Assembly: GCA_951640165.1 (NCBI GenBank)
Contig: OX621265.1
Location: 22,519,001-22,583,000 of the forward strand
DNA from: Pseudoips prasinana
Lineage: Eukaryota; Arthropoda; Insecta; Lepidoptera; Nolidae
Direction of reading: 5' to 3'
Length of the DNA stretch: 64,000 nucleotides
The notes beneath the pieces were generated by a model. It saw nothing but the letters and a program-made list of their open reading frames with translations, was not told the origin of the DNA and searched no databases. Positions 14,753-64,000 of this stretch are shown in pieces. The position numbers were made by a program, and so were the translations under genes. Each line of letters opens with the position of its first letter. The stretch's first letter is position 1.

Positions 14753-14772
14753 TTGGTGACCCCGCGTTCGAA

Positions 14773-21622: not shown

Positions 21623-21634
21623 TATAACGGCTTG

Positions 21635-21901: not shown

Positions 21902-22188
21902 TGTTCAGTAACGGGGGACTTCGGGGCGTCTTCAATTAGCGTTTTTATTTGATTGAGTTTCAATATGTTTATTGATCGAGTACAAATAAATTATAATAAA
22001 GAAAATACATGTGCGTGTGACCGGTAGCTAGTCTACAATCGAAAAAGGCTTTTAATATGGCGTCTCAGGCGCAGGTGGGGGTTTCTCCCAACGGCGCGAT
22101 AGTTCCTCCGCTTGCCACTCACTCGCGGCAGCACCTTCCGGCGTGTGACGTCATGCGTTTGAAGATATAGTTGGTAGGTGCGCGAACA
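21902..22188 (-). repeat. BEL/Pao 5' LTR
   Basis: 287 bp, same sequence as 15950-16236 by eye. It is the 5' (promoter) LTR in the element's orientation. Confidence 0.9.
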
Positions 22189-24108: not shown

Positions 24109-24943
24109 CGGCTTTCGATATTTATTAACCATGATAGATAGGGCTACCAAATGGCCTGAAGCCCTACCGCTGGAGGAAATAACCGCAGAACAAGTTGCTA
24201 ATGCATTCTATGAGGGTTGGATTGCGAGATTTGGTTGCCCAATAACCATAACCACGGATCAAGGAAGGCAATTTGAGTCTGACTTATTTAATAAATTAAT
24301 GCAACGCATGGGAATTCACCGCACCCGCACTACTGCCTACCACCCACAGTGTAATGGCGTGATTGAGCGATGGCACCGTTCACTCAAAACGTCACTCACC
24401 GCAAGACTCAAATCCACAACATGGTCACACGAGTTACCTACAGTGTTACTGGGACTGCGCGCGTCGATAAAAGAGGATGTAGGCGCTAGTACCGCAGAAT
24501 TATTATATGGCCAATCGCTGCGATTACCCGGAGAATTCTATGATGAATCAACTAAACATCGAGATACGATTTCAAACTTTATGAATAAATTGAATGGGGC
24601 TTTAAAGAAGGCCCAGGCGCAACGGAAATCTAACCAATCACGAGCAACATTTATTCACGACGATCTACACAAATGTTCGCATGTTTACCTACGCGATGAC
24701 GCATCAAGCAAACCTCTGACGCCGACCTACAGTGGCCCGTACCAAGTGATCGATCGTAAAGATAAGTACTTCACAATCCAGTTGCGCAATAGATGCACAC
24801 ATATCACTATTGACAGACTAAAGCCCGCTTTCCGCATCAACACTGAGACAGAGGAACCCGTCACGGATACGTACGCATACGTCACAAGATCAGGAAGGAC
24901 ATCGAAGCCCTGTGTACGTTTCACTAGCGGGGGAATGATGTAG
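24062..24943 (+). pseudogene. pol: Integrase core, unit D, out of frame
   Basis: Identical 293-codon core with the DDE triad. It carries the same +1 displacement even though unit D is otherwise the least damaged copy. Confidence 0.85.
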
Positions 24944-25241
24944 CAGCTCATACTTACGTATTGATATACCTACATACTAGAGGAGCGCACCGGCCGCGCG
25001 CCCGCGCATACTGAGCTAGCCAAAGTATGGAATGAGAACCGGCCGACCGTATCATCACGCTCGCACAATGTAGGGAGTACGACACACCTACCGACGTTGT
25101 CAAATAATGTTAGACATAAGTTTTTAGATGTACCTTATTTATTTTTATTATTTTGAACCGATACGGTATATATAAGCAGCGCTTCTCAATAAAGCACACA
25201 GATCGTTGTACGCCGTTTTACTTACCACACGCACCGCAACA
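24936..25241 (+). repeat. Gypsy LTR, unit D/E junction
   Basis: 306-bp LTR like the others. Confidence 0.85.
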
Positions 25242-25261
25242 TTGGTGACCCCGCGTTCGAA

Positions 25262-26119
25262 ATGGCCACGCCCGTAACAATGGAAGACAAAACTACGGCG
25301 CCTGCAGACGTTGAAGCAGTTAGCGTCCAGTCACGCATACCTAAATTCTGGTGCAACAGACCTAAGCTTTGGTTTGCTCAATTTGAGGTCATTATTCAAA
25401 ACCAAAAGCTCAGTGATGAAAGCAAGTTCGCACTTCTTGTGGCTCAGTTGGAGATCAAGGACATCGACCAAATCAGCGATATTATCCTGTCACCGGCCAA
25501 CTCCGGCCGATACGACAATGCGAAAAGAAGATTATTGGAGGTCTACGAAGATAGCGAGGGTATTCAGCTACAAAAACTATTGAATGAAATGGAGCTCGGC
25601 GACCAACGACCATCTCAGTTGCTGCGTCGAATGAGAAACCTCGCTGGGACTAAAATGCCAGACGACACCCTTAAAATGTTGTGGCAAGGACACCTACCTG
25701 CTTCTACCCGCACAGTGTTGGCATGTTTGAGTGAGGAATCCAAGCTAGACTCGTTGGCCGCCATGGCTGACAAAATGCAAGAGCAGCTAAGAGAGGTGAG
25801 CGCCGTGTGTTCATGCCAGTGTCAACCTACTACGTCAAAGACAGTGACGTCAGCTGAAATAGCGGTGACATCTGTATCTGCTGACCAGAAGCTTTACAGC
25901 ATGATTGAAGCTCTGACCAAGGAAGTCGCAGAGCTGAAAATGAACCGATCTCGCAAGTTCCAACGCCGATCCCACAATTTCAGAAGCCGTTCCAGCTCCA
26001 AATCTCGGGACAGGAGAAACACGATGTGCTATTTTCATAAGAAATTCGGGAAATCAGCATACCGATGCAGAAGTCCGTGCAGTTTTAAAGAGACGTCTAA
26101 CGAGAAGTCGGAAAACTAG
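25262..26119 (+). CDS. gag: Gag, unit E
   Basis: 285 residues, same as unit C. Confidence 0.85.
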   Translation: MATPVTMEDKTTAPADVEAVSVQSRIPKFWCNRPKLWFAQFEVIIQNQKLSDESKFALLVAQLEIKDIDQISDIILSPANSGRYDNAKRRLLEVYEDSEGIQLQKLLNEMELGDQRPSQLLRRMRNLAGTKMPDDTLKMLWQGHLPASTRTVLACLSEESKLDSLAAMADKMQEQLREVSAVCSCQCQPTTSKTVTSAEIAVTSVSADQKLYSMIEALTKEVAELKMNRSRKFQRRSHNFRSRSSSKSRDRRNTMCYFHKKFGKSAYRCRSPCSFKETSNEKSEN

Positions 26120-26529
26120 TGGAGACCCAAGCCGTGGCGGTGGCTGAAGTCGACGATTTATCCACATACCGCCTATTTTTATACGATAAATCGCCCGGAA
26201 AGAAATTCCTAATCGACACGGGTGCAAACGTTTCCGTGTTACCCGCCACCGCACGAGATAAACAGCGGATACCAACCAACTACTTATACGCAGCAAATGG
26301 ATCACAAATACCCACTTACGGTGAGCGAACCATTGTTCTCAACATCGGAATGCGTCGTGCCTACAGTTGGCGATTTATGGTTGCAACAGTTAGCCGGCCG
26401 ATATTAGGCGCTGATTTTTTGCATCACCATGCACTTATGGTGGATCTCCATGGGCGACGATTGGTGGACAAAAGAACCAACCTATCGGCCCGAGGGTTCC
26501 TGTCACCCGCAGCAGAAGGAAGCATCTGA
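26119..26529 (+). pseudogene. pol: Protease frame, unit E, ending in TGA
   Basis: As unit C; TGA at 26527-26529. Confidence 0.8.
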
Positions 26530-26562
26530 ACCATCGATGACAAGCTTCCCTACCACGACCTG

Positions 26563-28353
26563 TTGGCCCAATTTCCAGACATCACGAGACCAAACTTAGA
26601 GAAACTGGGAAATAGTGAAGTTGAACACTATATTGAAACCACCGGCCCGCCGATATTTACAAAAGCGAGGCCACTACCGCCGCATAAATATAACGCAGCA
26701 AAACAAGAATTCCAACTCATGATGGATCAAGGAATTTGTCGACCGTCTAATAGCCCATGGGCCAGTCCATTACATATGGTATTAAAGAAAGACGGTACCT
26801 ACAGAACCTGCGGCGATTATCGTAGACTTAACGCAGTAACTACACCCGACCGATACCCGATACCACGCCTGCACGACTTTACACATAACCTACAAGGTAA
26901 AACGATTTTTTCAAAAATCGATCTTCAAAAGGCCTACTATCAGATCAAAAACAGAGAAGAGGACGTGAAGAAGACAGCCGTGATTACCCCTTTTGGCTTG
27001 TACGAGTTCACCAGGATGTGTCCTGGTTTGATGAATGGAGGCCAGACCTTCCAACGTCATATCGACAACGTGCTCCGTGGCCTTCCTGTCTTCCCGTTCG
27101 TCGACGACATTCTCGTAGCTTCTGAAAACCAAGAAATACACAGAAGGGAACTTCAAGAAGTATTTAAACGTCTCAACGATAGTGGTTTAAAAATAAACGT
27201 CGCTAAGTGTATCTTCGGCCAGTCAAAACTAGATTTCCTGGGATACACGATAACACCAGAAGGCATTACACCGACAGAAGGGAAGGTACAAGCAATTCAG
27301 TCCTATCCATTGCCAAAAACAATCCAAGATCTACGTCGTTTCGTTGGAATGCTTAATTTTTATCGTTCGAGCATACACCATGCGGCCGAACATCAAAAAC
27401 AATTAAACAAATATTTTCACAACGCCAAGAAAAACGATAAAACAAACATACAATGGACAGAAGAGGCAAAACAAGCATTCAATCAATGTAAAGAGGATAT
27501 CAAGAACTGCGCATTATTGTCCTACCCATCGCTGAGCGAACCTTTCGCATTGATGACAGACGCGTCAAACTCATGTGCTGGAGCCGTTATACAGCAAAAG
27601 ATCAACGGCAGCTGGAGACCACTGGGATTTTATTCCAAAAAGTTCAGCGACGCTCAACAAAAGTACAGCACGTACGACCGTGAGTTGCTATCAATCTACA
27701 TGGCAATACGTCACTTCCGACGTGTGTTTGAAGGACGAGAGTTAATTGTTTACACGGACCACAAACCGCTGTGTAATGCATTAACATCAAACAGCAAGTC
27801 TGAGACGCCCCGCCGAACAAGATACCTTGAATATATCGGACAGTTCACGTCCAATATTCAACACGTAATCGGCCAGGACAACAAGGTCGCGGACGCATTA
27901 TCGCGAGTCGAAACAATAACATGTCCGTCACCACTGGATTACACCGAGTTAGCACTAAAACAAGATTTAGATGAAGAACTTAAATTGTTGTCAAACAAAG
28001 GAAAGCACCTATTCAAGAAGATCACCATCCCTAACTCAACTGCCCATCCCGTTACCTGCGAGATGTCATCAAGCACTGCTCGTCCATATTTGCCACTAGA
28101 TTTTCGAAAAGCAGTATTCCGAGCGATCCACGACCTTAGTCACCCCGGCATAAGGGCGACAAGGAAGCTAGTCACCGCTCGATACTGGTGGCCCGCAATG
28201 AATAGAGACGTAAATGTGTGGACTCGAACCTGCGACGCGTGCCAGCGCGCCAAGGTGCAACAACACACAAAAGCACCCATAGCAAGTTTCCAACAAGCAA
28301 ACAGACTTGGAGCATGTACATATAGATATTGTTGGTCCGTTACCTATTTCTGA
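26563..28353 (+). pseudogene. pol: RT-RNase H-integrase zinc domain, unit E
   Basis: As unit C, with the motif-A Asp codon GAT retained; ends at the shared frameshift. Confidence 0.85.
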
Positions 28354-29188
28354 CGGCTTTCGATATTTATTAACCATGATAGATAGGGCTACCAAATGGC
28401 CTGAAGCCCTACCGCTGGAGGAAATAACCGCAGAACAAGTTGCTAATGCATTCTATGAGGGTTGGATTGCGAGATTTGGTTGCCCAATAACCATAACCAC
28501 GGATCAAGGAAGGCAATTTGAGTCTGACTTATTTAATAAATTAATGCAACGCATGGGAATTCACCGCACCCGCACTACTGCCTACCACCCACAGTGTAAT
28601 GGCGTGATTGAGCGATGGCACCGTTCACTCAAAACGTCACTCACCGCAAGACTCAAATCCACAACATGGTCACACGAGTTACCTACAGTGTTACTGGGAC
28701 TGCGCGCGTCGATAAAAGAGGATGTAGGCGCTAGTACCGCAGAATTATTATATGGCCAATCGCTGCGATTACCCGGAGAATTCTATGATGAATCAACTAA
28801 ACATCGAGATACGATTTCAAACTTTATGAATAAATTGAATGGGGCTTTAAAGAAGGCCCAGGCGCAACGGAAATCTAACCAATCACGAGCAACATTTATT
28901 CACGACGATCTACACAAATGTTCGCATGTTTACCTACGCGATGACGCATCAAGCAAACCTCTGACGCCGACCTACAGTGGCCCGTACCAAGTGATCGATC
29001 GTAAAGATAAGTACTTCACAATCCAGTTGCGCAATAGATGCACACATATCACTATTGACAGACTAAAGCCCGCTTTCCGCATCAACACTGAGACAGAGGA
29101 ACCCGTCACGGATACGTACGCATACGTCACAAGATCAGGAAGGACATCGAAGCCCTGTGTACGTTTCACTAGCGGGGGAATGATGTAG
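28307..29188 (+). pseudogene. pol: Integrase core, unit E, out of frame
   Basis: As unit C. Confidence 0.85.
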
Positions 29189-29486
29189 CAGCTCATACTT
29201 ACGTATTGATATACCTACATACTAGAGGAGCGCACCGGCCGCGCGCCCGCGCATACTGAGCTAGCCAAAGTATGGAATGAGAACCGGCCGACCGTATCAT
29301 CACGCTCGCACAATGTAGGGAGTACGACACACCTACCGACGTTGTCAAATAATGTTAGACATAAGTTTTTAGATGTACCTTATTTATTTTTATTATTTTG
29401 AACCGATACGGTATATATAAGCAGCGCTTCTCAATAAAGCACACAGATCGTTGTACGCCGTTTTACTTACCACACGCACCGCAACA
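29181..29486 (+). repeat. Gypsy LTR, unit E/F junction
   Basis: 306-bp LTR like the others. Confidence 0.85.
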
Positions 29487-29506
29487 TTGGTGACCCCGCG
29501 TTCGAA

Positions 29507-30364
29507 ATGGCCACGCCCGTAACAATGGAAGACAAAACTACGGCGCCTGCAGACGTTGAAGCAGTTAGCGTCCAGTCACGCATACCTAAATTCTGGTGCA
29601 ACAGACCTAAGCTTTGGTTTGCTCAATTTGAGGTCATTATTCAAAACCAAAAGCTCAGTGATGAAAGCAAGTTCGCACTTCTTGTGGCTCAGTTGGAGAT
29701 CAAGGACATCGACCAAATCAGCGATATTATCCTGTCACCGGCCAACTCCGGCCGATACGACAATGCGAAAAGAAGATTATTGGAGGTCTACGAAGATAGC
29801 GAGGGTATTCAGCTACAAAAACTATTGAATGAAATGGAGCTCGGCGACCAACGACCATCTCAGTTGCTGCGTCGAATGAGAAACCTCGCTGGGACTAAAA
29901 TGCCAGACGACACCCTTAAAATGTTGTGGCAAGGACACCTACCTGCTTCTACCCGCACAGTGTTGGCATGTTTGAGTGAGGAATCCAAGCTAGACTCGTT
30001 GGCCGCCATGGCTGACAAAATGCAAGAGCAGCTAAGAGAGGTGAGCGCCGTGTGTTCATGCCAGTGTCAACCTACTACGTCAAAGACAGTGACGTCAGCT
30101 GAAATAGCGGTGACATCTGTATCTGCTGACCAGAAGCTTTACAGCATGATTGAAGCTCTGACCAAGGAAGTCGCAGAGCTGAAAATGAACCGATCTCGCA
30201 AGTTCCAACGCCGATCCCACAATTTCAGAAGCCGTTCCAGCTCCAAATCTCGGGACAGGAGAAACACGATGTGCTATTTTCATAAGAAATTCGGGAAATC
30301 AGCATACCGATGCAGAAGTCCGTGCAGTTTTAAAGAGACGTCTAACGAGAAGTCGGAAAACTAG
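29507..30364 (+). CDS. gag: Gag, unit F
   Basis: 285 residues, same as unit C. Confidence 0.85.
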   Translation: MATPVTMEDKTTAPADVEAVSVQSRIPKFWCNRPKLWFAQFEVIIQNQKLSDESKFALLVAQLEIKDIDQISDIILSPANSGRYDNAKRRLLEVYEDSEGIQLQKLLNEMELGDQRPSQLLRRMRNLAGTKMPDDTLKMLWQGHLPASTRTVLACLSEESKLDSLAAMADKMQEQLREVSAVCSCQCQPTTSKTVTSAEIAVTSVSADQKLYSMIEALTKEVAELKMNRSRKFQRRSHNFRSRSSSKSRDRRNTMCYFHKKFGKSAYRCRSPCSFKETSNEKSEN

Positions 30365-30774
30365 TGGAGACCCAAGCCGTGGCGGTGGCTGAAGTCGACG
30401 ATTTATCCACATACCGCCTATTTTTATACGATAAATCGCCCGGAAAGAAATTCCTAATCGACACGGGTGCAAACGTTTCCGTGTTACCCGCCACCGCACG
30501 AGATAAACAGCGGATACCAACCAACTACTTATACGCAGCAAATGGATCACAAATACCCACTTACGGTGAGCGAACCATTGTTCTCAACATCGGAATGCGT
30601 CGTGCCTACAGTTGGCGATTTATGGTTGCAACAGTTAGCCGGCCGATATTAGGCGCTGATTTTTTGCATCACCATGCACTTATGGTGGATCTCCATGGGC
30701 GACGATTGGTGGACAAAAGAACCAACCTATCGGCCCGAGGGTTCCTGTCACCCGCAGCAGAAGGAAGCATCTGA
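30364..30774 (+). pseudogene. pol: Protease frame, unit F, ending in TGA
   Basis: As unit C; TGA at 30772-30774. Confidence 0.8.
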
Positions 30775-30807
30775 ACCATCGATGACAAGCTTCCCTACCA
30801 CGACCTG

Positions 30808-32598
30808 TTGGCCCAATTTCCAGACATCACGAGACCAAACTTAGAGAAACTGGGAAATAGTGAAGTTGAACACTATATTGAAACCACCGGCCCGCCGATA
30901 TTTACAAAAGCGAGGCCACTACCGCCGCATAAATATAACGCAGCAAAACAAGAATTCCAACTCATGATGGATCAAGGAATTTGTCGACCGTCTAATAGCC
31001 CATGGGCCAGTCCATTACATATGGTATTAAAGAAAGACGGTACCTACAGAACCTGCGGCGATTATCGTAGACTTAACGCAGTAACTACACCCGACCGATA
31101 CCCGATACCACGCCTGCACGACTTTACACATAACCTACAAGGTAAAACGATTTTTTCAAAAATCTATCTTCAAAAGGCCTACTATCAGATCAAAAACAGA
31201 GAAGAGGACGTGAAGAAGACAGCCGTGATTACCCCTTTTGGCTTGTACGAGTTCACCAGGATGTGTCCTGGTTTGATGAATGGAGGCCAGACCTTCCAAC
31301 GTCATATCGACAACGTGCTCCGTGGCCTTCCTGTCTTCCCGTTCGTCGACGACATTCTCGTAGCTTCTGAAAACCAAGAAATACACAGAAGGGAACTTCA
31401 AGAAGTATTTAAACGTCTCAACGATAGTGGTTTAAAAATAAACGTCGCTAAGTGTATCTTCGGCCAGTCAAAACTAGATTTCCTGGGATACACGATAACA
31501 CCAGAAGGCATTACACCGACAGAAGGGAAGGTACAAGCAATTCAGTCCTATCCATTGCCAAAAACAATCCAAGATCTACGTCGTTTCGTTGGAATGCTTA
31601 ATTTTTATCGTTCGAGCATACACCATGCGGCCGAACATCAAAAACAATTAAACAAATATTTTCACAACGCCAAGAAAAACGATAAAACAAACATACAATG
31701 GACAGAAGAGGCAAAACAAGCATTCAATCAATGTAAAGAGGATATCAAGAACTGCGCATTATTGTCCTACCCATCGCTGAGCGAACCTTTCGCATTGATG
31801 ACAGACGCGTCAAACTCATGTGCTGGAGCCGTTATACAGCAAAAGATCAACGGCAGCTGGAGACCACTGGGATTTTATTCCAAAAAGTTCAGCGACGCTC
31901 AACAAAAGTACAGCACGTACGACCGTGAGTTGCTATCAATCTACATGGCAATACGTCACTTCCGACGTGTGTTTGAAGGACGAGAGTTAATTGTTTACAC
32001 GGACCACAAACCGCTGTGTAATGCATTAACATCAAACAGCAAGTCTGAGACGCCCCGCCGAACAAGATACCTTGAATATATCGGACAGTTCACGTCCAAT
32101 ATTCAACACGTAATCGGCCAGGACAACAAGGTCGCGGACGCATTATCGCGAGTCGAAACAATAACATGTCCGTCACCACTGGATTACACCGAGTTAGCAC
32201 TAAAACAAGATTTAGATGAAGAACTTAAATTGTTGTCAAACAAAGGAAAGCACCTATTCAAGAAGATCACCATCCCTAACTCAACTGCCCATCCCGTTAC
32301 CTGCGAGATGTCATCAAGCACTGCTCGTCCATATTTGCCACTAGATTTTCGAAAAGCAGTATTCCGAGCGATCCACGACCTTAGTCACCCCGGCATAAGG
32401 GCGACAAGGAAGCTAGTCACCGCTCGATACTGGTGGCCCGCAATGAATAGAGACGTAAATGTGTGGACTCGAACCTGCGACGCGTGCCAGCGCGCCAAGG
32501 TGCAACAACACACAAAAGCACCCATAGCAAGTTTCCAACAAGCAAACAGACTTGGAGCATGTACATATAGATATTGTTGGTCCGTTACCTATTTCTGA
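30808..32598 (+). pseudogene. pol: RT-RNase H-integrase zinc domain, unit F; motif A Asp changed to Tyr
   Basis: Codon TAT at 31165-31167 replaces the catalytic Asp of RT motif A, the same change as in unit B. Otherwise as unit C. Confidence 0.85.
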
Positions 32599-33433
32599 CG
32601 GCTTTCGATATTTATTAACCATGATAGATAGGGCTACCAAATGGCCTGAAGCCCTACCGCTGGAGGAAATAACCGCAGAACAAGTTGCTAATGCATTCTA
32701 TGAGGGTTGGATTGCGAGATTTGGTTGCCCAATAACCATAACCACGGATCAAGGAAGGCAATTTGAGTCTGACTTATTTAATAAATTAATGCAACGCATG
32801 GGAATTCACCGCACCCGCACTACTGCCTACCACCCACAGTGTAATGGCGTGATTGAGCGATGGCACCGTTCACTCAAAACGTCACTCACCGCAAGACTCA
32901 AATCCACAACATGGTCACACGAGTTACCTACAGTGTTACTGGGACTGCGCGCGTCGATAAAAGAGGATGTAGGCGCTAGTACCGCAGAATTATTATATGG
33001 CCAATCGCTGCGATTACCCGGAGAATTCTATGATGAATCAACTAAACATCGAGATACGATTTCAAACTTTATGAATAAATTGAATGGGGCTTTAAAGAAG
33101 GCCCAGGCGCAACGGAAATCTAACCAATCACGAGCAACATTTATTCACGACGATCTACACAAATGTTCGCATGTTTACCTACGCGATGACGCATCAAGCA
33201 AACCTCTGACGCCGACCTACAGTGGCCCGTACCAAGTGATCGATCGTAAAGATAAGTACTTCACAATCCAGTTGCGCAATAGATGCACACATATCACTAT
33301 TGACAGACTAAAGCCCGCTTTCCGCATCAACACTGAGACAGAGGAACCCGTCACGGATACGTACGCATACGTCACAAGATCAGGAAGGACATCGAAGCCC
33401 TGTGTACGTTTCACTAGCGGGGGAATGATGTAG
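32552..33433 (+). pseudogene. pol: Integrase core, unit F, out of frame
   Basis: As unit C; the stop lies inside the terminal LTR. Confidence 0.85.
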
Positions 33434-33731
33434 CAGCTCATACTTACGTATTGATATACCTACATACTAGAGGAGCGCACCGGCCGCGTGCCCGCGCATA
33501 CTGAGCTAGCCAAAGTATGGAATGAGAACCGGCCGACCGTATCATCACGCTCGCACAATGTAGGGAGTACGACACACCTACCGACGTTGTCAAATAATGT
33601 TAGACATAAGTTTTTAGATGTACCTTATTTATTTTTATTATTTTGAACCGATACGGTATATATAAGCAGCGCTTCTCAATAAAGCACACAGATCGTTGTA
33701 CGCCGTTTTACTTACCACACGCACCGCAACA
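33426..33731 (+). repeat. Terminal Gypsy LTR closing the array
   Basis: 306 bp, with one difference from the other LTRs (CGCGTGCCC instead of CGCGCGCCC near 33488). It ends ...GCAACA at 33731 and is followed by unrelated SINE sequence rather than a primer-binding site. This is the true right edge of the array. Confidence 0.9.
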
Positions 33732-37785: not shown

Positions 37786-40700
37786 CATCATCATCATATC
37801 AGCCGAAAGACGTCCACTGCTGGACAAAGGCCTCCCTCAAAGATCTCCACAATTGCCGGTCTTGCGCTATCCGCATCCAGCGTTTTCCAGCGACCCGCAC
37901 AAGATCATCGGTCCATCTTGTAGGGGGCCTGCCCACGCTGCGTCTTCCGGTTCGTGGTCGCCACTCGAGAACCTTTCTGCCCCAGCGGCCGTCGGCTCTA
38001 CGAGCTATGTGCCCTGCCCACTGCCACTTCAGCTTGGCAATTCTTAGGGCTATGTCGGTGACTTTGGTTCGCCTGCGGATCTCATCATTTCTGATTCGAT
38101 CTCGCAGGGAAACTCCAAGCATAGCCCTTTCCATTGCTCTTTGGGTGACCTTGAGCCGCCTGATAAGGCCCATAGTTAGCGACCACGTCTCTGTTCCGTA
38201 AGTCATCACTGGCAACACACACTGGTCGAAGACTTTCGACTTGAGACACTGCGGTATTTGGGACGAGAAGATATTACGTAGCTTCCCGAACGCTGCCCAG
38301 CCGAGTTGGATTCTACGATTGACCTCCTTCTCGAAGTTGGACCTACCTAGTTGGATGGTCTGTCCTAGGTAAATATAGTTCTCTACAACTTCGAGTGCAG
38401 AGTCTCCAACCTTAACTAGAGTGGGTGCAACATGGATGTTTGACATAATTTTCGTCTTATCCATGTTCATTTTCAGACCCACTTGTTGAGAGACTCTGCT
38501 GAGGCCATCGAGCATTGTACCGAGATCGTCAAGGGTCTCAGCCATGACTACTATATCGTCGGCAAATCGAAGGTGGGTGATGTACTCGCCATTGACATTG
38601 ATGCCAAAGCCTTTCCAGTCCAGAAGCTTGAAGACATCTTCCAATGCAGCGGTGAACAGTTTCGGAGATATAACATCTCCCTGTCTCACACCTCGCTGCA
38701 AGTGGATAGGTTTCGAGTTCTGGTCCTGGAGTCGCACTGACATAGTGGCGTTTTCGTACAAACACTTTAACACCTCGATATACCGGTAGTCGATTTGGCA
38801 CCTTTGGAGAGACCTCAGTACGGCCCAAGTTTCGATCGAATCGAAGGCTTTCTCATAGTCCACAAACGCTAAGCATAATGGCTGGTTATACTCTTCGGTC
38901 TTCTGTATAACCTGCCGCAGCGTATGTATGTGGTCTATGGTACTAAAGCCTTTACGGAAACCGGCTTGTTCGGGAGGCTGGAAGTCGTCAAACCTTCGTG
39001 CGAGACGATTCGTAATGACCCTCGAAAACAACTTGTAAACATGGTTCAGCAGTGTGATGGGTCTGTAATTCTTCAAGAGGGTTTTATCGCCCTTTTTGAA
39101 GAAGAGCACCACCACACCCCTGTGCCATGCTTTTGGCGTTTGACCTTCTAGTATGACGGAGTTAAATAACTTCTGAAGGGCCCGTAGGATTGGTGTACCA
39201 CCCGCTTTCAGAAGCTCTGCCGTAATTCCATCATCACCAGGCGCCTTGTTATTCTTAAGCTGTTCGAGAGCCATTCTAATCTCGCACAGGCTGACGTCCG
39301 GGATGTCGTCGGTGAAGTGTTGGGTTAGTCGTGCTCTGGGATCTGAGGCACAACTATCGACAGGTGACTGGGTTTTCGTATACAGCTGTCCATAGAACCT
39401 CTCGATCTCTCCCAGCAACTCAGGTTTAGACGTGACGATTCTGCCATCCTCAGTCTTCAGCTTCGTCAGTTGGCTCTGTCCAACAGACAGTTCTCTTGCA
39501 AACACTTTAGAGCCTTTGTTCCGCTCAATGGCTTCTTTAATACAATTTGTATTAAATTGGCGCGTGTCGCGAGTCAAAGACTTTGAGATCTGTCTGTTGA
39601 ACTGCCGGTATCTGGTAGCATCATCAGAGGATGTCAGAACCATTTTCCGTCTTTCGTCCATAAGCTGCAGGGTATAGTCAGAGATCTTTTTGGTTCTGTT
39701 TGTACGGTGGGCCTTGAAGACCTTAGACCCAGCCGTATGGACAGCTTCTACGAGCCTGTCATGGTATGAGTCCACTTCCTTGCAATCTGCTAGGCATTCG
39801 AAACGGTTTTGCAGTTCGAGCTGAAAGGGTTCAGGGTTTTGGATGTGGATGGGTAAAGGTCGGAGCGTAGACTTTATCAGTCGGGACCTCTGGAGCTTGA
39901 CATTTAGGTTCAATGAGCCTCTCACCAGTCTGTGATCGCTCCCGGTTTTTACCGTATTGATCACTGAGACGTCATTGAACACCTGTCTACTCGTCGACAA
40001 GATAAAGTCTATCTCGTTTTTTGTTTTACCATCGGGGCTTACCCAGATCCATTTGCGGCTTTCCGACTTCTTGAAAAAGGAGTTCATCATAAAGAGTCCC
40101 TCCTTCTCCATGAAGTCGGCCAACATTTGGCCCCGGGGGTTCCGGTCTCCAGTTCCAAATTGCCCCACTTTCAGCTCATTCCCGAATCGTTTACCCAGCT
40201 TAGCGTTAAAGTCCCCCATGACCACAGTGAAATAAGAGTTCGAGGTATGTATGGCTCTAGAAATATCCTCATACATGACCTCAACCTCATCGTCGGAGTG
40301 CGTCGAAGTCGGCGCGTAAACCTGTATGACCTTCAACGAATACCGCTTGGTAATTCTGAGTATAAGGTACGAAACCCTAGTCGACACACTCTCGATTTTC
40401 ACTATGTTGTGGACGAGGGACTTGTGGACTATGAACCCAACACCACCTTGGGACAGTTGGTCGCCTTCCCGGAAATAGAACAGATTCCCGGATTTCAGGA
40501 TTATCGTGTCCTCTCCCTCTCTTCGGACTTCAGATAATCCTATTATGTCCCAATGTAACCTGCTCAATTCTTCCTCCAGTTCGATCATCTTCTCGTCGGT
40601 CCGCATTGTGCGTGTGTTGTATGTTGCCAGGGCCAGAGGTCGTCGGTTTTGGTAACGCGGAATCTGCCGGGGATTCTTAGCACCCCCTGCCCTGCCGTAA

Positions 40701-53699: not shown

Positions 53700-54320
53700 T
53701 GAAGAGAGTTTGAGTTAAAATAATAATTTTAACTCAAAGACTCGACCGACAATGAAGAGAGTACGGGCTCTCATAGTTAGGCTGTCTTTCTGTTGGTCGA
53801 GTCTTTGAGTTAAAATAATTATTTTAACTCAAAGACTCGACCGACAATGAAGACAGTACGGGCTCTCATAGTTAGGCTGTCTTTCTGTTGGTCGAGTCTT
53901 TGAGTTAAAATAATTATTTTAACTCAAAGACTCGACCGACAATGAAGACAGTACGGGCTCTCATAGTTAGGCTGTCTTTCTGTTGGTCGAGTCTTTGAGT
54001 TAAAATAATTATTTTAACTCAAAGACTCGACCGACAATGAAGACAGTACGGGCTCTCATAGTTAGGCTGTCTTTCTGTTGGTCGAGTCTTTGAGTTAAAA
54101 TAATTATTTTAACTCAAAGACTCGACCGACAATGAAGACAGTACGGGCTCTCATAGTTAGGCTGTCTTTCTGTTGGTCGAGTCTTTGAGTTAAAATAATA
54201 ATTTTAACTCAAAGACTCGACCGACAATGAAGAAAGTACGGGCTCTCATAGTTAGGCTGTCTTTCTGTCGGTCGAGTCTTTGAGTTAAAATAATTATTTT
54301 AACTCAAAGACTCGAGCGAC
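53700..54320. repeat. 95-bp palindromic minisatellite
   Basis: Six complete 95-bp units start with AACTCAAAGACTCGACCGAC at 53731, 53826, 53921, 54016, 54111 and 54206, with a partial seventh at 54301. Each unit is itself inverted: GACTCGACCGACAATGAAGACAG pairs imperfectly with CTGTCTTTCTGTTGGTCGAGTC around a ~20-nt loop. Consecutive units are joined by a second palindrome, TTGAGTTAAAAT/ATTTTAACTCAA. Units differ by only a few bases. Confidence 0.95.
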
Positions 54321-55677
54321 AATTTTATTAACTAGTAACATAACAAGACAGATAGTGACAGGAGTGTATAAAATATAATTATTTTAATATAAGATTTTAT
54401 AATATGCCAGTGCTTTGATTAATAATTAGAAAGTAGGTTTCAACACCTCTAAATTACTTTGATTAACTAGATGTCATAAAAAAAAACAATGTAAAAAAGG
54501 ATATTCAAAAAATCGAAAACAAAAAGCAAAAGAAGACGAAAATAGCAAGCCACGAGTTTCTTTGTGGTTTTCTTCTCCGAGTCGTCCTCCTAGGTAGCTA
54601 GAGAAAGCCGCAGGTTCGCTAGGGTAGGTTGCCCCCTTAACACGTGATCGGTAATCCCGTGCAAGTGATCTGACCCCCATTTCTAATTCCATCTTTATAC
54701 TTCAGCGGCCGCCTGAGCTGTGGCCCGAAACCAATAAGGGTGCCCTCAGGTATTATTCGCTTAAATTAAGCTACTGGTTGAGAGCCTTTTGCGCTAGCTA
54801 GATATAAAAATATATGTGACGAAACAGATCGCACGGACGGACTAATTCATAATATTTTGTTGTTTTAATTACTGTTTTTAAACTGTGTTTATGTATTGCA
54901 TTGTGAGCTTGACAAGTACAAGTGTATGTAAATACCCAAGTGCTGAATAAATTTCATTATATCAATAAGTACGTAAGTACGTTCTTAAAACAGTGAAGGA
55001 AAACATCGAGAGGAAACCCTGAACCTACCGCTCTCATCGTGACCGCCGATCGGGTTGCAGCAGCAAGTTATGTTCATGCAGCACTTGGTCTAGTGCTAAC
55101 CAAATAGCCTGAATTGGGAAGTTTGGGGGTTACACGCCCGTGCTTCGAAGATCACGTCAAGTGGTCGGTCCTGCGCCTGACCTGTTCATAGCTTTGCCAT
55201 TCCTGTGCCTATGCTTTTGCACAGGCCCGCGCAACGACCCGTGTCCAGCGTGATTGGCTCGTCTCCGTAGACATTTATCATAAACATAATATTTATTTTT
55301 GTAAACATGTGTATAAGTTCCAATAGATGATAATTAATAGAATATACTTGTTCGCTATGTTTTGCCAATAGAAGGCGAACAAAATAATTTAAGCTTAAAC
55401 TAAATACTATATAATAGAAAATGTCAAATATCTTAAACTAACGAAATAATTGATAATTGTCAATTATAATACCTTAATTTAAACAGTCCATACAAATAGA
55501 ACGTGGACAATAGTGCAGGTTTCAATTCCAACTTATCCAGTAATGGTCTAATCATTAAGTCAGTACCTTCTGCTTATCATTAATAAGCTCAGTAATCGAG
55601 TAATAACATTTGTTTATAAGGATGAGCATCAACATTGGCTGACCACTGCTATTATTAACTTGTTTTTTTGCCTGCAG
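54321..55677. other. Intron 4 end, no gene recognised
   Basis: AT-rich interval with a GC-richer patch at 55020-55260 that resembles dispersed lepidopteran repeat sequence. No convincing exon or TE boundary found. Confidence 0.4.
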
Positions 55678-56614: not shown

Positions 56615-58350
56615 TCAGCGACTACTAGTGGACTGGTTCGCAAGTAGCGCTGAGAATGTAGCTTGTGTGGTGGCAGGATCAATCTGGATCTCGGCATAGT
56701 TCTTATCCTGTTCTACCTGATTATTTCTGTTCGGAATAGTAACTTGTGGACGTTGATTCCAATATCCTTTTACGGTGTGCGCAATACCAAGTGCACATGC
56801 ACCAAATAGCAGTAGGTATAGTGGAGTAATAGTATAATATACTTTGTGCAATTCAACCTTATTCAGAGACAATGGCGGTTCTATTGACAGTTCACTAGCA
56901 CTTACTTGTAGGCGATGAAGATCGATAGATTTCAATATCAACTTTTTTTTCTCTGGCTCTGAATAGTCTCCTTATAATTTGGGAAGTTCATTATCTTGAC
57001 TACCTGTCCTTTTATTCTGTCGTCACGATTTATTAGAGTCAGCTTTGGGCTTCGTAGAGTGCAGCCTTTGGGAATAGTGATTAGATAACTTCCCTGTATC
57101 GTGCTGTACTGATCTTGCGTGCAGGTAAAATGAATCTTGGTGGAAACTGGAAAATTTACCGCATAGTGCCGATCGTCGAGGGTTTCTACAGCTTCTGTTG
57201 TCAATTTGGCCGTTGCGAATGTACAAGATGCGGTGATTTGTTGAGTGGTGATCAGTTGGTAGATGCAGTCAGCTTGATTATTATAGTGGTAATTGATGTT
57301 GTCCTCGCAGAAATAATATGGGCCAGACTTCGGGCATTCAGCCTCTATGTACATAAAATCCTTGTCATGAATTGCCAGGAAGGGATGTGAAGGGATGAGT
57401 ATCTTATAATCCTTGTTGGGGACTATAGATAACTTATAGAGATTATAAGCGGAAGGGTGAATAACTGGGAATTTAAAAATGATTACTAAACTGTCACCTT
57501 TATAATAATATCCTAATTTAATTATATCAAAATATTCTCTAAAACTAACACTCAGTATTTGATCTCTGCCATAGAGAGCATTTAACTGTTCTATCATATC
57601 ATGAAACATATCTAATCTAAACATAAGAAAATGTGTGCTTTTAGCACGAATAAAAGCTAGTAAGTTTTCTAACCTAAGAATCTCATCAGACAAAGATTCT
57701 ACATTATCTGCTAACGTTAATATAAATTAGTTAAATGGGTAGAGTTAAATGGGTGTACTTTATGAAATCAGTTTCTATGTCTTTGGCCAAGATTTCATTT
57801 ACAACTTTTTGTATTTTGCCCTGATTTAATATTAGGTCCTTTAAAATGATAGAATTTTGTGACATCCAATTTTTATTTAAGCTTATACGGTTATTGATTT
57901 GTGTGGCTATCTTATTTTCATTTTCCTGCAATAACATGATGGCATTGTCATATCGAATAGCATCTGTTGCATCTAAATTGCCAGAAATACTTTTAATGAC
58001 CGAGCCTAAGCCGTCAATTAAACCTCGCTTAGTGCGATTAGACTGAAATAATTCTAACTGTTGAAATAGCCTATCCATTTTATTGTACAAATATTCAATA
58101 TGGGGTTTGAATAATGAAACCGTTTTATTGTGAAGCTGGGGCGAAACATTATCTAACTGTTCTTTAATTATATCTAAATTTTTATGAATGATACCTAAAT
58201 TAACTGGTTGAACAAAGGAGTGATAGTGTGAAATAATTTTGGTTTGTCCTAAATTGAAAGGTAGTATGCCTGGCCCTTTCTCCAGGCTATTAAATGTTAT
58301 CTCTTGTGCTTGAACCAGGCTCAGGATCAGGGAGAGAGTCCTGTAACAAG
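56615..58350 (-). pseudogene. env: F-type envelope gene of an insect endogenous retrovirus, two frame breaks
   Basis: Minus-strand env in three frames: about 58340-57731, 57693-56938 and 56941-56615. The first segment lacks an ATG but opens at an acceptor-like TTGTTACAG (near 58341) followed by a hydrophobic signal-like stretch, as expected for spliced errantivirus env mRNA. A furin-type site (RTKR) and a Gly/Ile-rich fusion-peptide-like segment (GLIDGLGS) follow. The third segment has a membrane anchor (LYLLLFGACALGIA) and a short cytoplasmic tail. Breaks are near 57740 and in a T8 homopolymer at 56943-56950. In functional relatives the protein mediates membrane fusion; this copy is broken as read. 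Confidence 0.75.
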
Positions 58351-58599
58351 CGAACCCTGTTAGGGACTCTTTTCAACCGAGATTTGGCTACTGGTCCACG
58401 CTTCTTTTTAGTATAAATATGAATTGGTAGATCCGACAAAACTGTATCTGATGTAAATCTAGGGGCTAATTTTTGGCGACTGGCCATGGGATTACGCACG
58501 AAAATCTGCTGATCTGGGGAGTATTCCTGTTCAGGTTCTCGATCTTTATTTATATTCTCAGTGATTCGCGTACGATCGTGAAGCGAAGAGTCATTAATA
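58290..58599 (-). pseudogene. pol: Endogenous retrovirus pol 3' end (integrase C-terminus)
   Basis: Minus-strand frame with FVRNPMASRQKLAPRF and LSDLPIHIYTKKKRGPVAKS, a pattern of the errantivirus/Gypsy integrase C-terminal tail. It ends at 58290 and overlaps the start of env. The upstream boundary is the transposon insertion at 58600; residues encoded beyond 58603 belong to the transposon TIR. The rest of pol should lie past 63985, outside the window. Confidence 0.75.
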
Positions 58600-58603
58600 A
58601 TTT

Positions 58604-58640
58604 GGACCGATTTAAGCAAAAATGATTCAATCCACACAAA
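58604..58640 (+). repeat. Transposon TIR, left
   Basis: Outer 23 bases are identical to the inverted right end (63945-63981); two mismatches by base 33. Confidence 0.9.
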
Positions 58641-58962
58641 CCTTATTTTGAGATATTTGACTTTAAAATTCATTTCAGTTTTTCTCAGGCTTTGTAATGC
58701 TAAATTTAGTTTTTTTTAATTTTATGTAATTTTATACGAACTTAACTATTTCACATACATGAATTTATTGAATATATTGTAATAATTTAGATGATATTAA
58801 CGAAAATATGCTCCGGGATCATTTTTACAAAATACATTTTGTATGGAATTAACTTTGTAGGTTGCAGAAAGCAAAATGCAAAAGTGATTCAAAATGAGAC
58901 AAAAATAGACACTGAAAAAATGTTTATTATTCTTGTTTTATTAAAAAAATACAAAAAATACC

Positions 58963-61280
58963 CTACTCCTCATCTAAATCAAAGTCTGGTTCAACACAAA
59001 AACCATCTATATCATCTGTTACTGTATCGTCTCCCCTCAGGGTTTTGTAGTAATCGATGCAATCATTTGGTATAAGATGGAATAATGATTTCAAATCATT
59101 TAACTTTTTTTTATTAATCAGTTTTCCTGATGGCCATAATTCTTGCAAATCTTCTTCTACAATATCAAACTCAACACCTTTAAATTTCTTTTTTATATTG
59201 AGTTCTTTATAGTTTTCATCAAAGGTAGATCTCATGAACAAAGAATGTGGAGCCTGTTTTTTTATTAATATTTCTTTTGTTTTAAGCCAGTTTACTTTAC
59301 TCTTATCATTAAATGTTTTTCTATTAGTTATTTTCTTTTCTAGAATATGAGATCCAACAAAATCACAACTTTCCATTTTATGAACCTGTAAAGGGTTTTT
59401 GTTTTTACATTGTTTCATGATGGCAATATAATCATTCACGGAATATATCCTTTCATATTGCTTAAGTCGAGTCTCAATTTTAGCGAAATCGTTGTCGTTG
59501 GGCAGAAATGTGTGTCCTGATTCTAGGTATCGAAAGCTGATTGTCTCTAAGGTGGGGTGTCTATTTAAAATAGCCTTCAAAATTAAAACAATTTTTATAT
59601 TTCTATTTTGACCTCCGCAACAGTCACTCCACAAGATCAATTCTTTTACTGTAGGGCTTAGCAAGCACTTAATATATTTTCTCAAACATGAACCCACTTC
59701 TTGAGCCCCTCTACCTGCCTCGCCTTCATCCCAAACATAACAATTCCCAACATCGTTGGAAGCCGAGTGTATACCACAGTTGTAGACCCATAACTGCCTT
59801 TTATAGAAAACTATATTGGTCGGTATTCTAGGTAAGGGTAACGTTTTTTCTAAATCGTAAGTCAAACATTCAGTTTCTTCACAAGTTTTAGCCTGTTCAA
59901 AATCTTCCTTCATCTTCTTCCTTAAATCTTCCGCAATTTTTTGGTGTTCTTCTTGTTGTCTTTGGGCATTTTCTTTTTCAGTTGTGGTAGTAGAATTTTT
60001 TAACGCAATTCGGTAAAGATCACATTTGTTACATGTGTCTTTTTTAAGACTCTTGCATCTCAAATTGAAATTTTGTACGAAAACTTTTCTTACAATATTG
60101 AAGGATGGACATTTTTCGTCTTTACCAAATTCTTTTTCAAATTCTATTTTAAATAGTTCGTAAATTTTTGGTACTGTCATTCCTGGCTGCAAATATAAAA
60201 CATGACTGTTCTTTTCCCTACAATAATGTGACTCGTATTTAGGTAACCTTCTGATAACATCAATGATAAGCTCAATATGTCTTTGTGGCGTTTTATTCCA
60301 TCCACCTGCTCTTTCTCCTCTTCTGTCTTTTATTTCTCGGTCGTTGCGATTTTTACTAAGACTAACAGTAACTTTTTGGGGTGATATTTGTAGCGTTCCA
60401 CAAAACATGTCTCGACAAACTGGTATATTGCTAAGTTTATACACGCGAACAAATTGTCGAGGTTTTCTCTTTGACGGGGAACTTAATGTAACGTAACTTC
60501 GTTTCTTTTTGCTTTCTGTAACGTTAGATGCTATGTATAAAAGTTGTGCTGCGTATGATCCAAGATGTACGAATTTATGAAATTCTCGTTACCTATCTTC
60601 TTTTGACATTAAATTAGCACAATCGTTTTTGCATGAACATTTAAAGTCAATGAATTTTTTTGATGGCACATCCTTTTTTTTAGTTTGGTAAGGTAAATTT
60701 TTGTACTTTCTTTCTTTAGTTTCCTGACGATTATATTTTTGTTTTAGTTTTCTTCCTCTCTTTTTACGACCTTCATATTCGTTTTCTAGTACATTATCTG
60801 AAGTACATACAATATCGTTTGCAATTTCTTGTACGTAATTAATTTGTGTTTCTGCTTCCTTACTTACTTCAGTGTTTGTTCTTGTTACACATTCTTTTAC
60901 ACTTTCTTCTATATTATCTTTGTTTCTGTCTTCTTCAATATTAAGTCTCTCTGTTGATTTTACTTTTTTAGTTCTCTTTTCTGCAGAATGGATTAATGCT
61001 TCTGAAGTTATGATGCTTCTTTCATCACAAGCAGTGTCACTTTCTGAATCTGTCGTATCTGATGCAATAAAATCTGGATCTTTTACGCTGTCATCACTGT
61101 TATATGATAATATATAATTATTATTTTTTGGTTTACCTTCTGATGTCTGTGGGGATGGTTCTTCGGTAATTGTATTCATTAATTCAGTGTGCATAAGCCT
61201 CAATGGAGTCAACGGGGAATATGAAGGTGGAGGAATTGAAAAATTAGAAAGAAGCGTGGGGCTAGTAACGCTTTCATTAT
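58963..61280 (-). pseudogene. Transposase exon 4 (main catalytic exon) with in-frame TAA
   Basis: The acceptor ATCTTTCAG ends at 61281; the exon carries 772 codons to the stop at 58963. One TAA at 60589-60591 interrupts it between an acidic/basic N-terminal half with a Cys cluster (FKCSCKNDCANLM) and the catalytic half. The frame before and after is identical, so this is a single nonsense change. The C-terminal half has a Cys motif (CNKCDLY), WVYNCGIHSAS, WDEGEAGRG, LILWSDCCGGQNRN and YLESGHTFLPNDNDFA, the hallmark blocks of this widespread insect transposase-like family, with Asp/His candidates for catalysis. From 60444 to 58963 a 493-codon open stretch retains the whole catalytic half. Confidence 0.75.
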
Positions 61281-61373
61281 CTGAAAGATATACAATAAAA
61301 TGAACAGGTTAGTTAGTTGCAGTTTAGTATAGCAAACATTTTACTGTCTTAGGATCATAATGTGACCGTTTAC

Positions 61374-61781
61374 CTTCAGTTATTGACTTTTCCAAAACTT
61401 CACCAGAAACCATTTGGCTTACGTCGGCTGGCGATTTGATAGAATGAGTTTCTTCATTATCACTTTTTAAAATACAAGATGCTTGTTCTTTGTTCGTGCA
61501 ATCTGGCTGTAAACAAGAGTCTGATTCCTCATCATCACTTTCTTCTATATATATTTCTTGTCTACCTTGACTGTAATCAAGGTGTTGAACTACTGTGGTA
61601 CATTTTGGTGAACTATCTGTAATATTACTAGTTCCTTGAAGTGGATCTTTAGGGCATCGTTCAACAAAAGGGTCATTAGGCTCTTCAAACTGCTCTTTTG
61701 ACAAAATGTTGAACAATTTTTCCGTTTCAGGAGACATTGCTCTGATTGGCGATGACGTACAAGATTGTTGATTTTCATCAC
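61374..61781 (-). CDS. Transposase exon 3
   Basis: Acceptor TTGTTTCAG, donor GTAAAC, 408 bp, phase-compatible with exons 2 and 4. It encodes an acidic Ser/Glu-rich region (IEESDDEESDSC) without recognisable domain, typical of the variable N-terminal part of this family. Confidence 0.65.
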
Positions 61782-61890
61782 CTGAAACAATAAGGGGCTG
61801 TAAACTATTTTACTCTTACTAAAGTACTTTACGTTTTACCTATTCAACATTTTGACGGGTCACGTAAACCATAATAAGTATCAATGTCTT

Positions 61891-61964
61891 TTACCCGACC
61901 CGGGGATCGAACCAGCAACCTAGCAGGCCGTACATAGTACCATCGAGCCACCAAAGCAGGAGGA
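61891..61964 (-). mobile_element. tRNA-like SINE head in transposase intron 2
   Basis: On the minus strand TGGTGGCTCGATGGTACT and GGTTCGATCCCCGGGTCGGG form A- and B-box-like motifs of a tRNA-derived head. It cannot be a normal tRNA gene because the surrounding intron and SINE-like GGGTAAAA context replace a proper tRNA end. TSD not resolved. Confidence 0.5.
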
Positions 61965-62023
61965 GGAAATAAATAGATAAAATTTACCTAGTTTTTATTA
62001 TTAAAATTTGTGTAGGTACTTAC

Positions 62024-62149
62024 CTAACTTACTTTGAGCCGCTTGACGAAAGTTGTCACTGCAATAGTCTTTCTGAACCATTCTTATCATATTATCACTC
62101 CTCTTACATCTCTTAGAAAGATGTGAATAATTTTGGAGCGACCGGTTAT
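62024..62149 (-). CDS. Transposase exon 2
   Basis: Acceptor ...TAGAAG, donor GTAAGT, 126 bp, in phase with exons 1 and 3. It encodes RSLQNYSHLSKRCKRSDNMI, basic, possibly DNA-binding. Confidence 0.6.
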
Positions 62150-62587
62150 CTTCTATTTGTGGCAAAACATGAAAAAAACAAATATTAGGTAGTAAGTTAG
62201 TGAGTTCAACTTTGCCTTTATTTGAAGGTATCTACCAAAGGTAGCAAGCCAGGCCATAGAGCCAAAGAGTACGTTATTTAGTTGACAAAAATATGTAGAT
62301 ACTTAAATAAAAATTCTTCCGGCGATATGTTGATAATGTAATCCTTAAATATTGTTATTTTCATAAAAAACATAATCCAAATAAGTTATTATGCAACAGA
62401 AACAATTTAATTTACTAAAGTAATAGTAGGTAAAATAGCCGACGTCGATGCATTTTGATTTTTGGCGGTATCTTTGACAAAACTTAGCAAGTACCAAGCC
62501 GTTCAGTTCACGACAAAAAAGCAATCGTATATTATCTACTCGAAATATTAATCAATTACCATTCCTACAATGATAATAATTACTTAC

Positions 62588-62657
62588 CAACATCTTCTTG
62601 TCGTTCTGCAACTGTTTTTTCACGAACACTTTTCAATATTGAACCTTTTCGATTCAT
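62588..62657 (-). CDS. Transposase exon 1
   Basis: ATG (62655-62657) starts MNRKGSILKSVREKT; the donor GTAAGTA ends the exon after 70 bp in phase 1. With exons 2-4 the coding sequence totals 2922 bp, exactly divisible by three, which supports the model. The ATG was chosen as the only one giving this phase agreement. Confidence 0.6.
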
Positions 62658-63981
62658 ATTTTGTAAGTTTAAGAGTAAACTTTTGTTAAAAACCTCAAAT
62701 TATCTACTTACAAACACAATTAAACAAAATCAAAACAATGAGAAGGTACACTTATGTTTTATTTATTTTTTATTGCACAGCAATAATATCACAACGTTTC
62801 AATAGACGAGATCAATCGAACTGACTAGGCCGGCTCCCCTCTCCGCCCGCTACCCTCCCCGCAGCGCGGTTCGCGCGGCACGTGCAGCTCATGTAGGTAT
62901 AATCCGACCGCGACCGCGAGTGACGCGGTCGAGCCACGCAGTTTGCCAGTTATTAATAATTATGTAATAAATATATTATTATATAAATTAAGTAGGGAAT
63001 TGCAATAAATCTCGAGTGGATCCTTTTTGTGTATTAACTTAAAGTTTAATATGTTTTTTTTCAAAACCGCAATAATGATTCAAGCTCTCAGGTTCATTTA
63101 CGTAAAAATTTAAATAAAGAAAGTGTGTGCAAAACAATATTGCAAAAAAGATTCAAGGGACGTTGAATCGTTTTTGTAAAACGCTGTAATAATTTTTCAC
63201 TGCGCTTAAAATTTTTCAAAAATGATCCATGTCTCTTGAATCTTTTTAGCAAAACTTAAGCGGGTCTAATAGGTTCATTTTGAAATTTGCATAAATGATC
63301 TTCGTTAAGATTGTCTACTTAACCACATTATCCTAAGAAAAATAATAAATTTTCTTACAAAACATACAATTTTATTACAATTATAATAAACTGCAATAAT
63401 AAAATACACGGTTTAAATAAATAAATACCTATTTAACTAAAGTTTTCGATATAAAAATAATATTTTGTTTAGTATTTATCGCCAAGATAGAATATTAATG
63501 ATAATTTTATACTTATTAAACCGTGAATCGTTGTTTAAGAATAAAATATTACGTATTTCTATATTTCATGTGGTCTGAATCTATAAAGTTATGTAATCGA
63601 ATGTTATTTTTAAATGAGTTAAAATGATTCATGACTTTTGAAACATTTAAACAATATTTTTTTGTAATATTTTGTATGTTGTTTAAAAAGCATAATTGTT
63701 CCAAGTAGTATGAATCATTATAGCAAAAATAAATTATTACATGAGAGGACAACTCAAGACATTGCAATAATGATTCAAATAGCTTGAAACACTTATGCAT
63801 TTTAAAAATTGATCTTCGACATGATAGCTGTGGCTTGGATCATATGGATTTTCGCCAATATTATTAAGATAGAATGACGAGTCTTTGATATGTTAAAATA
63901 TACCTTATTTGCATAGCATAGGTCACAAAATCTCGAAATTGTCAAGGTTGTGGGTTGGATCATTTTTGCTTAAATCGGTCC
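62658..63981 (-). other. Transposon 5' region with GC-rich block and subterminal repeats
   Basis: Upstream of the transposase ATG, a GC-rich block (62820-62950) stands out from the AT-rich surroundings and may be the promoter. From about 63070 to 63981 variants of AATGATTCAA/TTGAATCATT recur in both orientations up to the TIR, as expected for transposase-binding subterminal repeats. No other gene. Confidence 0.6.
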
Positions 63982-64000
63982 ATTTGGAACACTTCCTTCA

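What the first reader, a model, noticed from the sequence alone, without database searches (positions are those of the whole stretch)
58600..63985. Near-intact 5.4-kb transposon with a four-exon, ~973-codon transposase broken by one TAA
TSD ATTT, matching TIRs, and a gene model whose exon phases agree throughout (2922 bp coding) define a complete element. Only TAA 60589-60591 interrupts it. This is the best candidate here for a poorly described system. Sister copies without the stop may be active.
Basis: partly seen in the sequence, partly recalled or inferred. Interest (0 to 1): 0.8.

Follow-up and report, generated by a model that had tools for sequence, protein, structure and literature searches.

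The report
Young insect DNA transposon, DUF7869 transposase
This is a complete, recently inserted jumping gene of an insect genome whose enzyme gene is broken by one stop codon in this copy only; near-identical sister copies, one with an unbroken gene, show that a little-described transposon family has moved recently.

Summary
Confirmed. Window 58604-63981 (5378 bp) is a full DNA transposon: 33-nt inverted repeats, 4-bp target duplication ATTT, minus-strand four-exon gene with one internal stop. The window's own genome holds 8 copies: six full length (five others 99.55-99.80% identical), one truncated, one split. All 7 copies with both ends visible have a perfect 4-bp duplication (AATT x4, GATT, ATTT, AGTT). 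The stop is private to this copy (sense codon in 7 of 7 others); one of five other full-length copies has an uninterrupted 974-codon frame. The protein matches Pfam DUF7869; its predicted model has an RNase H/integrase-like core with three nearly invariant aspartates. Five insertions of divergent relatives (of 14 regions examined) share GGAC termini and 4-bp duplications; GWTYCA motifs cluster at the gene-5' end in this element and 3 of 4 relatives tested, mostly as head-to-head pairs 13-14 bp apart: probable transposase sites. Best reading: a DDD cut-and-paste transposon resembling the Sola superfamily; membership is untested because no Sola reference sequence was available. Exons 1-2 rest on splice signals alone; activity is not shown. 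Novelty lies in the DUF7869 assignment and end anatomy, not the mechanism.

The parts
58600..58603 (.). left target site duplication ATTT
63982..63985 (.). right target site duplication ATTT
58604..63981 (-). complete transposon, 5378 bp, gene on the minus strand
58604..58636 (+). terminal inverted repeat at the gene-3' end, GGACCGATTTAAGCAAAAATGATTCAATCCACA
63949..63981 (-). terminal inverted repeat at the gene-5' end
62588..62657 (-). exon 1 (70 bp, ATG); splice signals only, no credible homologue among 120 relatives
62024..62152 (-). exon 2 (129 bp); splice signals only, no credible homologue among 120 relatives
61374..61781 (-). exon 3 (408 bp), holds a SPIRxMSPETxxLFNIL segment seen in relatives
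   Evidence: best E 6e-5 against 120 proteins
58963..61280 (-). exon 4 (2318 bp with stop), transposase body
60589..60591 (-). internal stop codon, private to this copy
59302..59646 (-). match to Pfam PF25273 (DUF7869), 28.6 bits, cut-off 26
59458..59874 (-). RNase H-like catalytic core (residues 239-377 of the 541-aa part); D245 at 59854-59856, D322 at 59623-59625, D365 at 59494-59496, E372 at 59473-59475
63017..63961 (.). asymmetric subterminal array: 13 GATYCA in 62960-63981 (16 GWTYCA in the right-hand 1000 bp), including 5 head-to-head pairs 13-14 bp apart
58624..58891 (+). two GATYCA sites at the gene-3' end (58624, 58886); not a significant cluster with the wider motif
58923..58942 (-). 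two AATAAA words just after the stop, possible polyadenylation signals
   Evidence: read
38681..39377 (-). unoccupied relative of the target (non-LTR reverse transcriptase gene) of sister copy L009; shows AATT once

Best explanation
A non-functional copy of a young, low-copy, autonomous DNA transposon family. The gene reads inward from the gene-5' (right-hand) end and encodes a ~974-aa transposase: a probably disordered N-terminal tail, conserved Cys/His residues that may bind zinc, and an RNase H-like DDD core. Proposed mechanism: the enzyme binds the inverted repeats and the array of head-to-head GCAAAAAxGATYCA sites at the gene-5' end, pairs the ends, cuts them and joins them to a target with a 4-bp stagger, preferring AATT-like sites. 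Shown by sequence: ends, 4-bp duplications, unoccupied targets, youth, near-invariant acidic residues, motif clustering. Predicted: the fold. Inferred: site binding, excision (cut-and-paste rather than copy-out), splicing, activity in trans. This copy lost its gene through one private stop, most simply after insertion, and may still be moved by enzyme from an intact copy.
Against: Foldseek gave no PDB or viral match at E<=0.001; the fold claim rests on VIA Z (10.4, where 7-8 is typical of models without a clear match; the Mos1 rows have rmsd near 16 A), secondary structure order and residue conservation. No RNA, protein or transposition data. Exons 1-2 lack homology support. No excision footprint was looked for, so copy-out is not excluded. 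Unoccupied targets were found for the window copy and for 1 of 5 sisters tested against the window. An inverted repeat starting GGAC with an exact 4-bp duplication was found in 5 of 14 divergent regions; in L026 the repeat is there but the flanks differ (AACT/ATTA). The motifs were chosen after seeing repeats in this element and widened after seeing relatives, so the shuffle counts are post hoc; L036 is weak (5 vs 2.5, 31 of 300 shuffles), and the gene-3' 400 bp is not enriched in 4 of 5 elements.
Confidence: 0.88

Rival explanations
1. A retroelement-like or segmentally duplicated region, not a DNA transposon: the copies arose by duplication of a locus.
For: The window is full of LTR and non-LTR elements, including a near-identical tandem array.
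Against: Copies lie on eight different contigs; identity stops exactly at GGACC/GGTCC with unlike flanks and a 4-bp duplication each time; no reverse transcriptase frame in the element; unoccupied target for L009.
Confidence: 0.02
2. The protein is a domesticated or passenger gene carried by a transposon that is moved by another transposase.
For: Databases name the family DUF7869 or uncharacterised; no source name, as far as shown, says transposase.
Against: Divergent families that share the protein share the same kind of termini and duplication length (5 insertions of 4 families; L036 and L037 are one family); integrase-like core with nearly invariant Asp triad; no other large gene in the element.
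Confidence: 0.05
3. The family is already dead: the intact frame is chance survival and all copies are relics of one past burst. (Not exclusive of the best explanation.)
For: Five of the six full-length copies, this one included, carry a disabling stop or frameshift.
Against: Only 2-8 substitutions from the column majority per full-length copy, one complete frame; some single-base frameshifts could be sequencing errors (inference).
Confidence: 0.35
4. Recent horizontal arrival: the family entered this genome from another species and then made about eight copies. (Not exclusive of the best explanation.)
For: The 357-bp gene-3' end matches only the 8 young copies; next relatives in the genome are 63-77% identical; one protein of unknown origin is 88% identical over 89% of the 541-aa part.
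Against: Counts from that search are lower bounds; the source of the 88% protein is not named; the gene-5' end search did not complete. Recent reactivation of one resident copy would look the same.
Confidence: 0.4

Closest known systems
Sola superfamily (Sola1/Sola2) of eukaryotic DNA transposons
   Same: DDD transposase, 4-bp duplications, inverted repeats of 11-1124 bp, mostly 2-9 kb (PMC10741241, passages); Sola2 elements of amoebae have AT-rich duplications (AWWT; ATAT, AAAT, ATTT) and an 888-aa enzyme (PMC3627910, passages); Sola1 mean length 5445 bp in bivalves (PMC10294476, passages).
   Different: Sequence kinship to a Sola transposase could not be tested; GATT and AGTT duplications here fall outside AWWT; the passages read do not mention a head-to-head subterminal array.
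Kolobok and piggyBac
   Same: 4-bp duplications and DDD/E transposases; Kolobok termini 5'-RR (PMC9587614, passages), as here GG.
   Different: Both use TTAA (same passages); here AATT, GATT, ATTT, AGTT and never TTAA in 7 of 7 copies.
Retroviral integrases and mariner-type transposases (Mos1, SETMAR)
   Same: RNase H-like core in the predicted model.
   Different: 7-12% identity for the rows cited, fold level only; mariner makes 2-bp TA duplications (PMC10741241 passage).
CACTA (En/Spm) subterminal repeat arrays (recalled, no call)
   Same: Many short enzyme-binding motifs clustered near the ends.
   Different: Termini GGAC, not CACTA; 4-bp not 3-bp duplications; motif in head-to-head pairs at one end.

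Membership tests
DDE/D cut-and-paste transposons (general) | terminal inverted repeats and constant-length target duplication | tested here: met
   7 of 7 copies with both ends visible have 4 bp
DDE/D cut-and-paste transposons (general) | RNase H-like core with three acidic residues | tested here: met
   (predicted model; Foldseek alone gave nothing at E<=0.001)
DDE/D cut-and-paste transposons (general) | excision and transposition catalysed by the encoded protein | not testable with these tools
   needs an assay
Sola | DDD transposase | tested here: met
   Asp in 227 of 228 (D245), 220 of 220 (D322), 222 of 223 (D365) aligned residues of 235 proteins, gaps set aside; E372 is Glu in 219 of 222, so DDE is not fully excluded
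Sola | 4-bp target duplication | tested here: met
Sola | sequence kinship to described Sola transposases | not testable with these tools
   no Sola reference held; two founding papers (recalled DOIs) not held
Sola2 of amoebae | AWWT duplications | tested here: inconclusive
   5 of 7 fit (AATT x4, ATTT); GATT and AGTT do not
Kolobok | TTAA duplication | tested here: not met
[quoted passage not shown]
   by eye only: the conserved H359 is preceded by ESG in the window protein, so E, not C or D, stands three before it; no formal test
piggyBac | TTAA duplication | tested here: not met
DUF7869 (PF25273) | score over the curated cut-off | tested here: met
   28.6 vs 26 bits

The most novel reading that the evidence does not exclude
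DUF7869 proteins are the transposases of a large, still expanding insect DNA transposon group of its own, separate from Sola, marked by GGAC termini (in the subgroup studied), 4-bp AATT-like duplications, an integrase-like DDD(+E) core and an asymmetric array of head-to-head binding sites 13-14 bp apart at the promoter end. In this genome 150 loci were scored out of 901 candidates and all 150 pass the family cut-off.
Probability: 0.25. Interest if true: 0.6.

Novelty: new member of a known kind. Interest (0 to 1): 0.42.

Why it matters
It gives a likely function to a protein family that databases list as unknown, so many 'genes' of this family in insect annotations are probably transposases. 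A young family with an intact copy, defined ends and known target duplications is a practical candidate for an insect gene-transfer tool and for watching a transposon invasion at an early stage. The paired-site array at one end is a testable model of how such enzymes recognise their ends.

Tried and rejected
End point: the T/A beside the repeat makes 58603/63982 look like part of it; the other copies show that the element starts at GGACC with a 4-bp duplication. Weak hits set aside: NCBIfam RNA polymerase and tRNA ligase models, Pfam Rpr2 and GIDA below cut-off; no PDB sequence match. No relative was confirmed in IMG/VR by protein or by alignment or in prokaryote genome contigs. Foldseek PDB and viral searches gave nothing at E<=0.001; families absent there are not excluded. 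A tRNA-like stretch in intron 2 was not called by ARAGORN, bacterial setting. Joined flanks of L010, L012, L013 and L014 had no match in the window. Nine of the 14 divergent regions (L026 among them) gave no GGAC repeat with exact 4-bp duplication and were not pursued; the same scan also returned repeat pairs not starting with GGAC (in L027, L031, L033, L035, L037, and copies of the same repeats shifted by a few bases), which I dropped. L036 was left out of the pair-orientation count (one search used 4 of 5 elements). The distant 795-codon family (L040) has a candidate inverted repeat GTGTCGGTTAGATA but I saw no matching duplication, so nothing is claimed for its ends. Searches for print: 'DUF7869' 0 papers; five Sola phrases, 7 papers holding at least one; listings only. 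Only PMC papers under open licences are covered; Repbase and Dfam are not searchable here, so the family may well be catalogued there.
Full report
Observation. The inverted repeat arms are 34 nt at 94%, the duplication ATTT flanks the element, and the four-exon minus-strand model gives 2925 bp with one internal stop. The element proper is 58604-63981, 5378 bp.

Copies. The window lies in a 1.126-Gb, 56-contig genome. A DNA search with the 1623-bp last-exon frame gave 32 rows: 9 belong to 8 near-identical copies (one copy is split) on 8 contigs, and the other 23 are 63-77% identical. I fetched the seven others. Five are full length, 99.55-99.80% identical; one (L011) matches only element positions 1-4145; one (L015/L016) is split by about 20.3 kb of other DNA (and the coordinates). 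Every copy with both ends visible, 7 of 7, has a perfect 4-bp duplication: AATT in four, ATTT here, GATT, AGTT; the single visible end of L011 is flanked by AATT. The 357-bp gene-3' end matches the same 8 places and gave no other match (counts are lower bounds). The corresponding search with the gene-5' end did not complete.

The stop. At 60591-60589 all 7 sister copies have a sense codon. Under the window's gene model, 1 of the 5 other full-length copies has an uninterrupted frame; the other four have a stop or frameshift of their own, and the truncated copy has a frameshift. Full-length copies differ from the column majority by 2-8 substitutions and 0-10 indel columns, a star-like pattern. 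With a recalled lepidopteran mutation rate near 3e-9 per site per generation this means roughly 0.1-0.5 million generations; that is an estimate, not a result.

Unoccupied targets. Sister copy L009 sits in a non-LTR reverse-transcriptase gene; its flanks, joined with one AATT, align through the junction with a relative inside this window (39377-38681, 89%) without a gap there. The joined flanks of the four other full-length sisters had no match in the window. The window copy sits in what I read as the pol 3' region of an errantivirus-like element; its flanks, joined with one ATTT, leave a continuous frame in one of three frames.

Gene model. All three introns have GT-AG ends. Exon 3 shares a short segment with relatives (best E 6e-5 against 120 proteins); exons 1-2 have no credible homologue among them. 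In two relatives of the same genome (L034, L038) the order of N-terminal segments, read by eye, differs from the window's, so that region is modular and its splicing needs RNA evidence.

Ends of relatives. Of 14 divergent regions fetched, a scan for an inverted repeat plus exact 4-bp duplication found GGACGTAG ends in 5: L027 AATT, L034 AATT, L036 AAAT, L037 AAAT, L038 AGTT; L036 and L037 are one family, so this is 4 families. L026 has the repeat but non-matching flanks; the other 8 gave none. Where found, GGAC termini and a 4-bp A/T-rich duplication hold across enzymes about 45-60% identical to the window's in most stretches.

Subterminal array. GATYCA, chosen after seeing repeats, occurs 13 times in 62960-63981 against 0.99 in dinucleotide shuffles (0 of 500 reach it), twice in the 359-bp other end (0.32; 18 of 500), and 6 times in the 3695 bp between (3.5; 63 of 500). 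With the wider GWTYCA, chosen after seeing relatives, the first 1000 bp from the gene-5' tip hold 16 (2.1 expected) in the window element and 10 (2.6), 10 (2.3) and 12 (3.0) in L034, L038 and L027, each with 0 of 300 shuffles as high; L036 has 5 (2.5; 31 of 300). The gene-3' 400 bp is enriched only in L027 (3; 4 of 300). The first site lies 21 nt from the tip in four of these five. Of 13 close pairs (11-15 bp apart) in four elements, 11 are head-to-head at 13-14 bp, one is tandem and one tail-to-tail; the common form is GCAAAAAxGATYCA-N7-TGRATCxTTTTTGC, read by eye. I take these as transposase-binding sites; binding is inferred.

Abundance. A scan of the genome for PF25273 had 901 first-look candidates; 150 were scored and all 150 passed the cut-off, 10 of them with a stop inside the match, many in open frames of about 700-980 codons; none of 14 control genomes, not named in the answer, had a match. 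The window's own copy is not in that list, so the count is a lower bound. Two copies of one distant family are 99.7% identical over 3.4 kb, each with a 795-codon frame.

Placement. DDD core, 4-bp A/T-rich duplications, length and inverted repeats fit Sola as described in the passages read; TTAA families are excluded by the duplications. Kinship by sequence to Sola could not be tested. I therefore say it works like a Sola-type cut-and-paste transposon and leave membership open.

Noticed in passing
6324-15949 and 22187-33731 (also 1-2320): Tandem array of a Gypsy-like LTR element, unit 4245 bp, stretches 99.87-100% identical; in the units listed the pol frame is split at the same place (a 301-aa frame follows a longer one in each); a BEL-like 1811-aa frame (16199-21634) lies between the two blocks. 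Looks like amplification by tandem duplication, not transposition.
   Followed up: partly
G000:C30, between L015 position 4771 and L016 position 1157: One sister copy is split by about 20.3 kb of DNA whose outermost 40 bp are inverted repeats (ATGTGCGTTACCCC...) and which duplicated 9 bp (GTTACGTTA): another large transposon; a DUF7869 hit at C30:10886291 lies inside it.
   Followed up: no
56938-57726 and 57731-58372, minus strand: Env-like frames of an errantivirus-like provirus with a furin-like RTKR site, in two pieces (my reading); the transposon sits just upstream, in its pol 3' region. Described only.
   Followed up: partly
53709-54323: 95-bp tandem repeat, 6.5 copies, 98% matches.
   Followed up: no
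61880-61960: Intron 2 holds a tRNA-like, possibly SINE-derived stretch (GGATCGAACC box); ARAGORN calls no tRNA.
   Followed up: partly
62820-62940: Short GC-rich block upstream of the ATG in an otherwise AT-rich element, possibly promoter-related (read).
   Followed up: no
L040 (G000:C3:10617500-10622500): Distant DUF7869 family with intact 795-codon frames; about a dozen loci with the same match range and similar frame length are listed; its ends and duplication were not settled.
   Followed up: partly
3458-5375 and 38115-40117: Two non-LTR elements 87% identical in the window; their family is the target of sister copy L009.
   Followed up: yes
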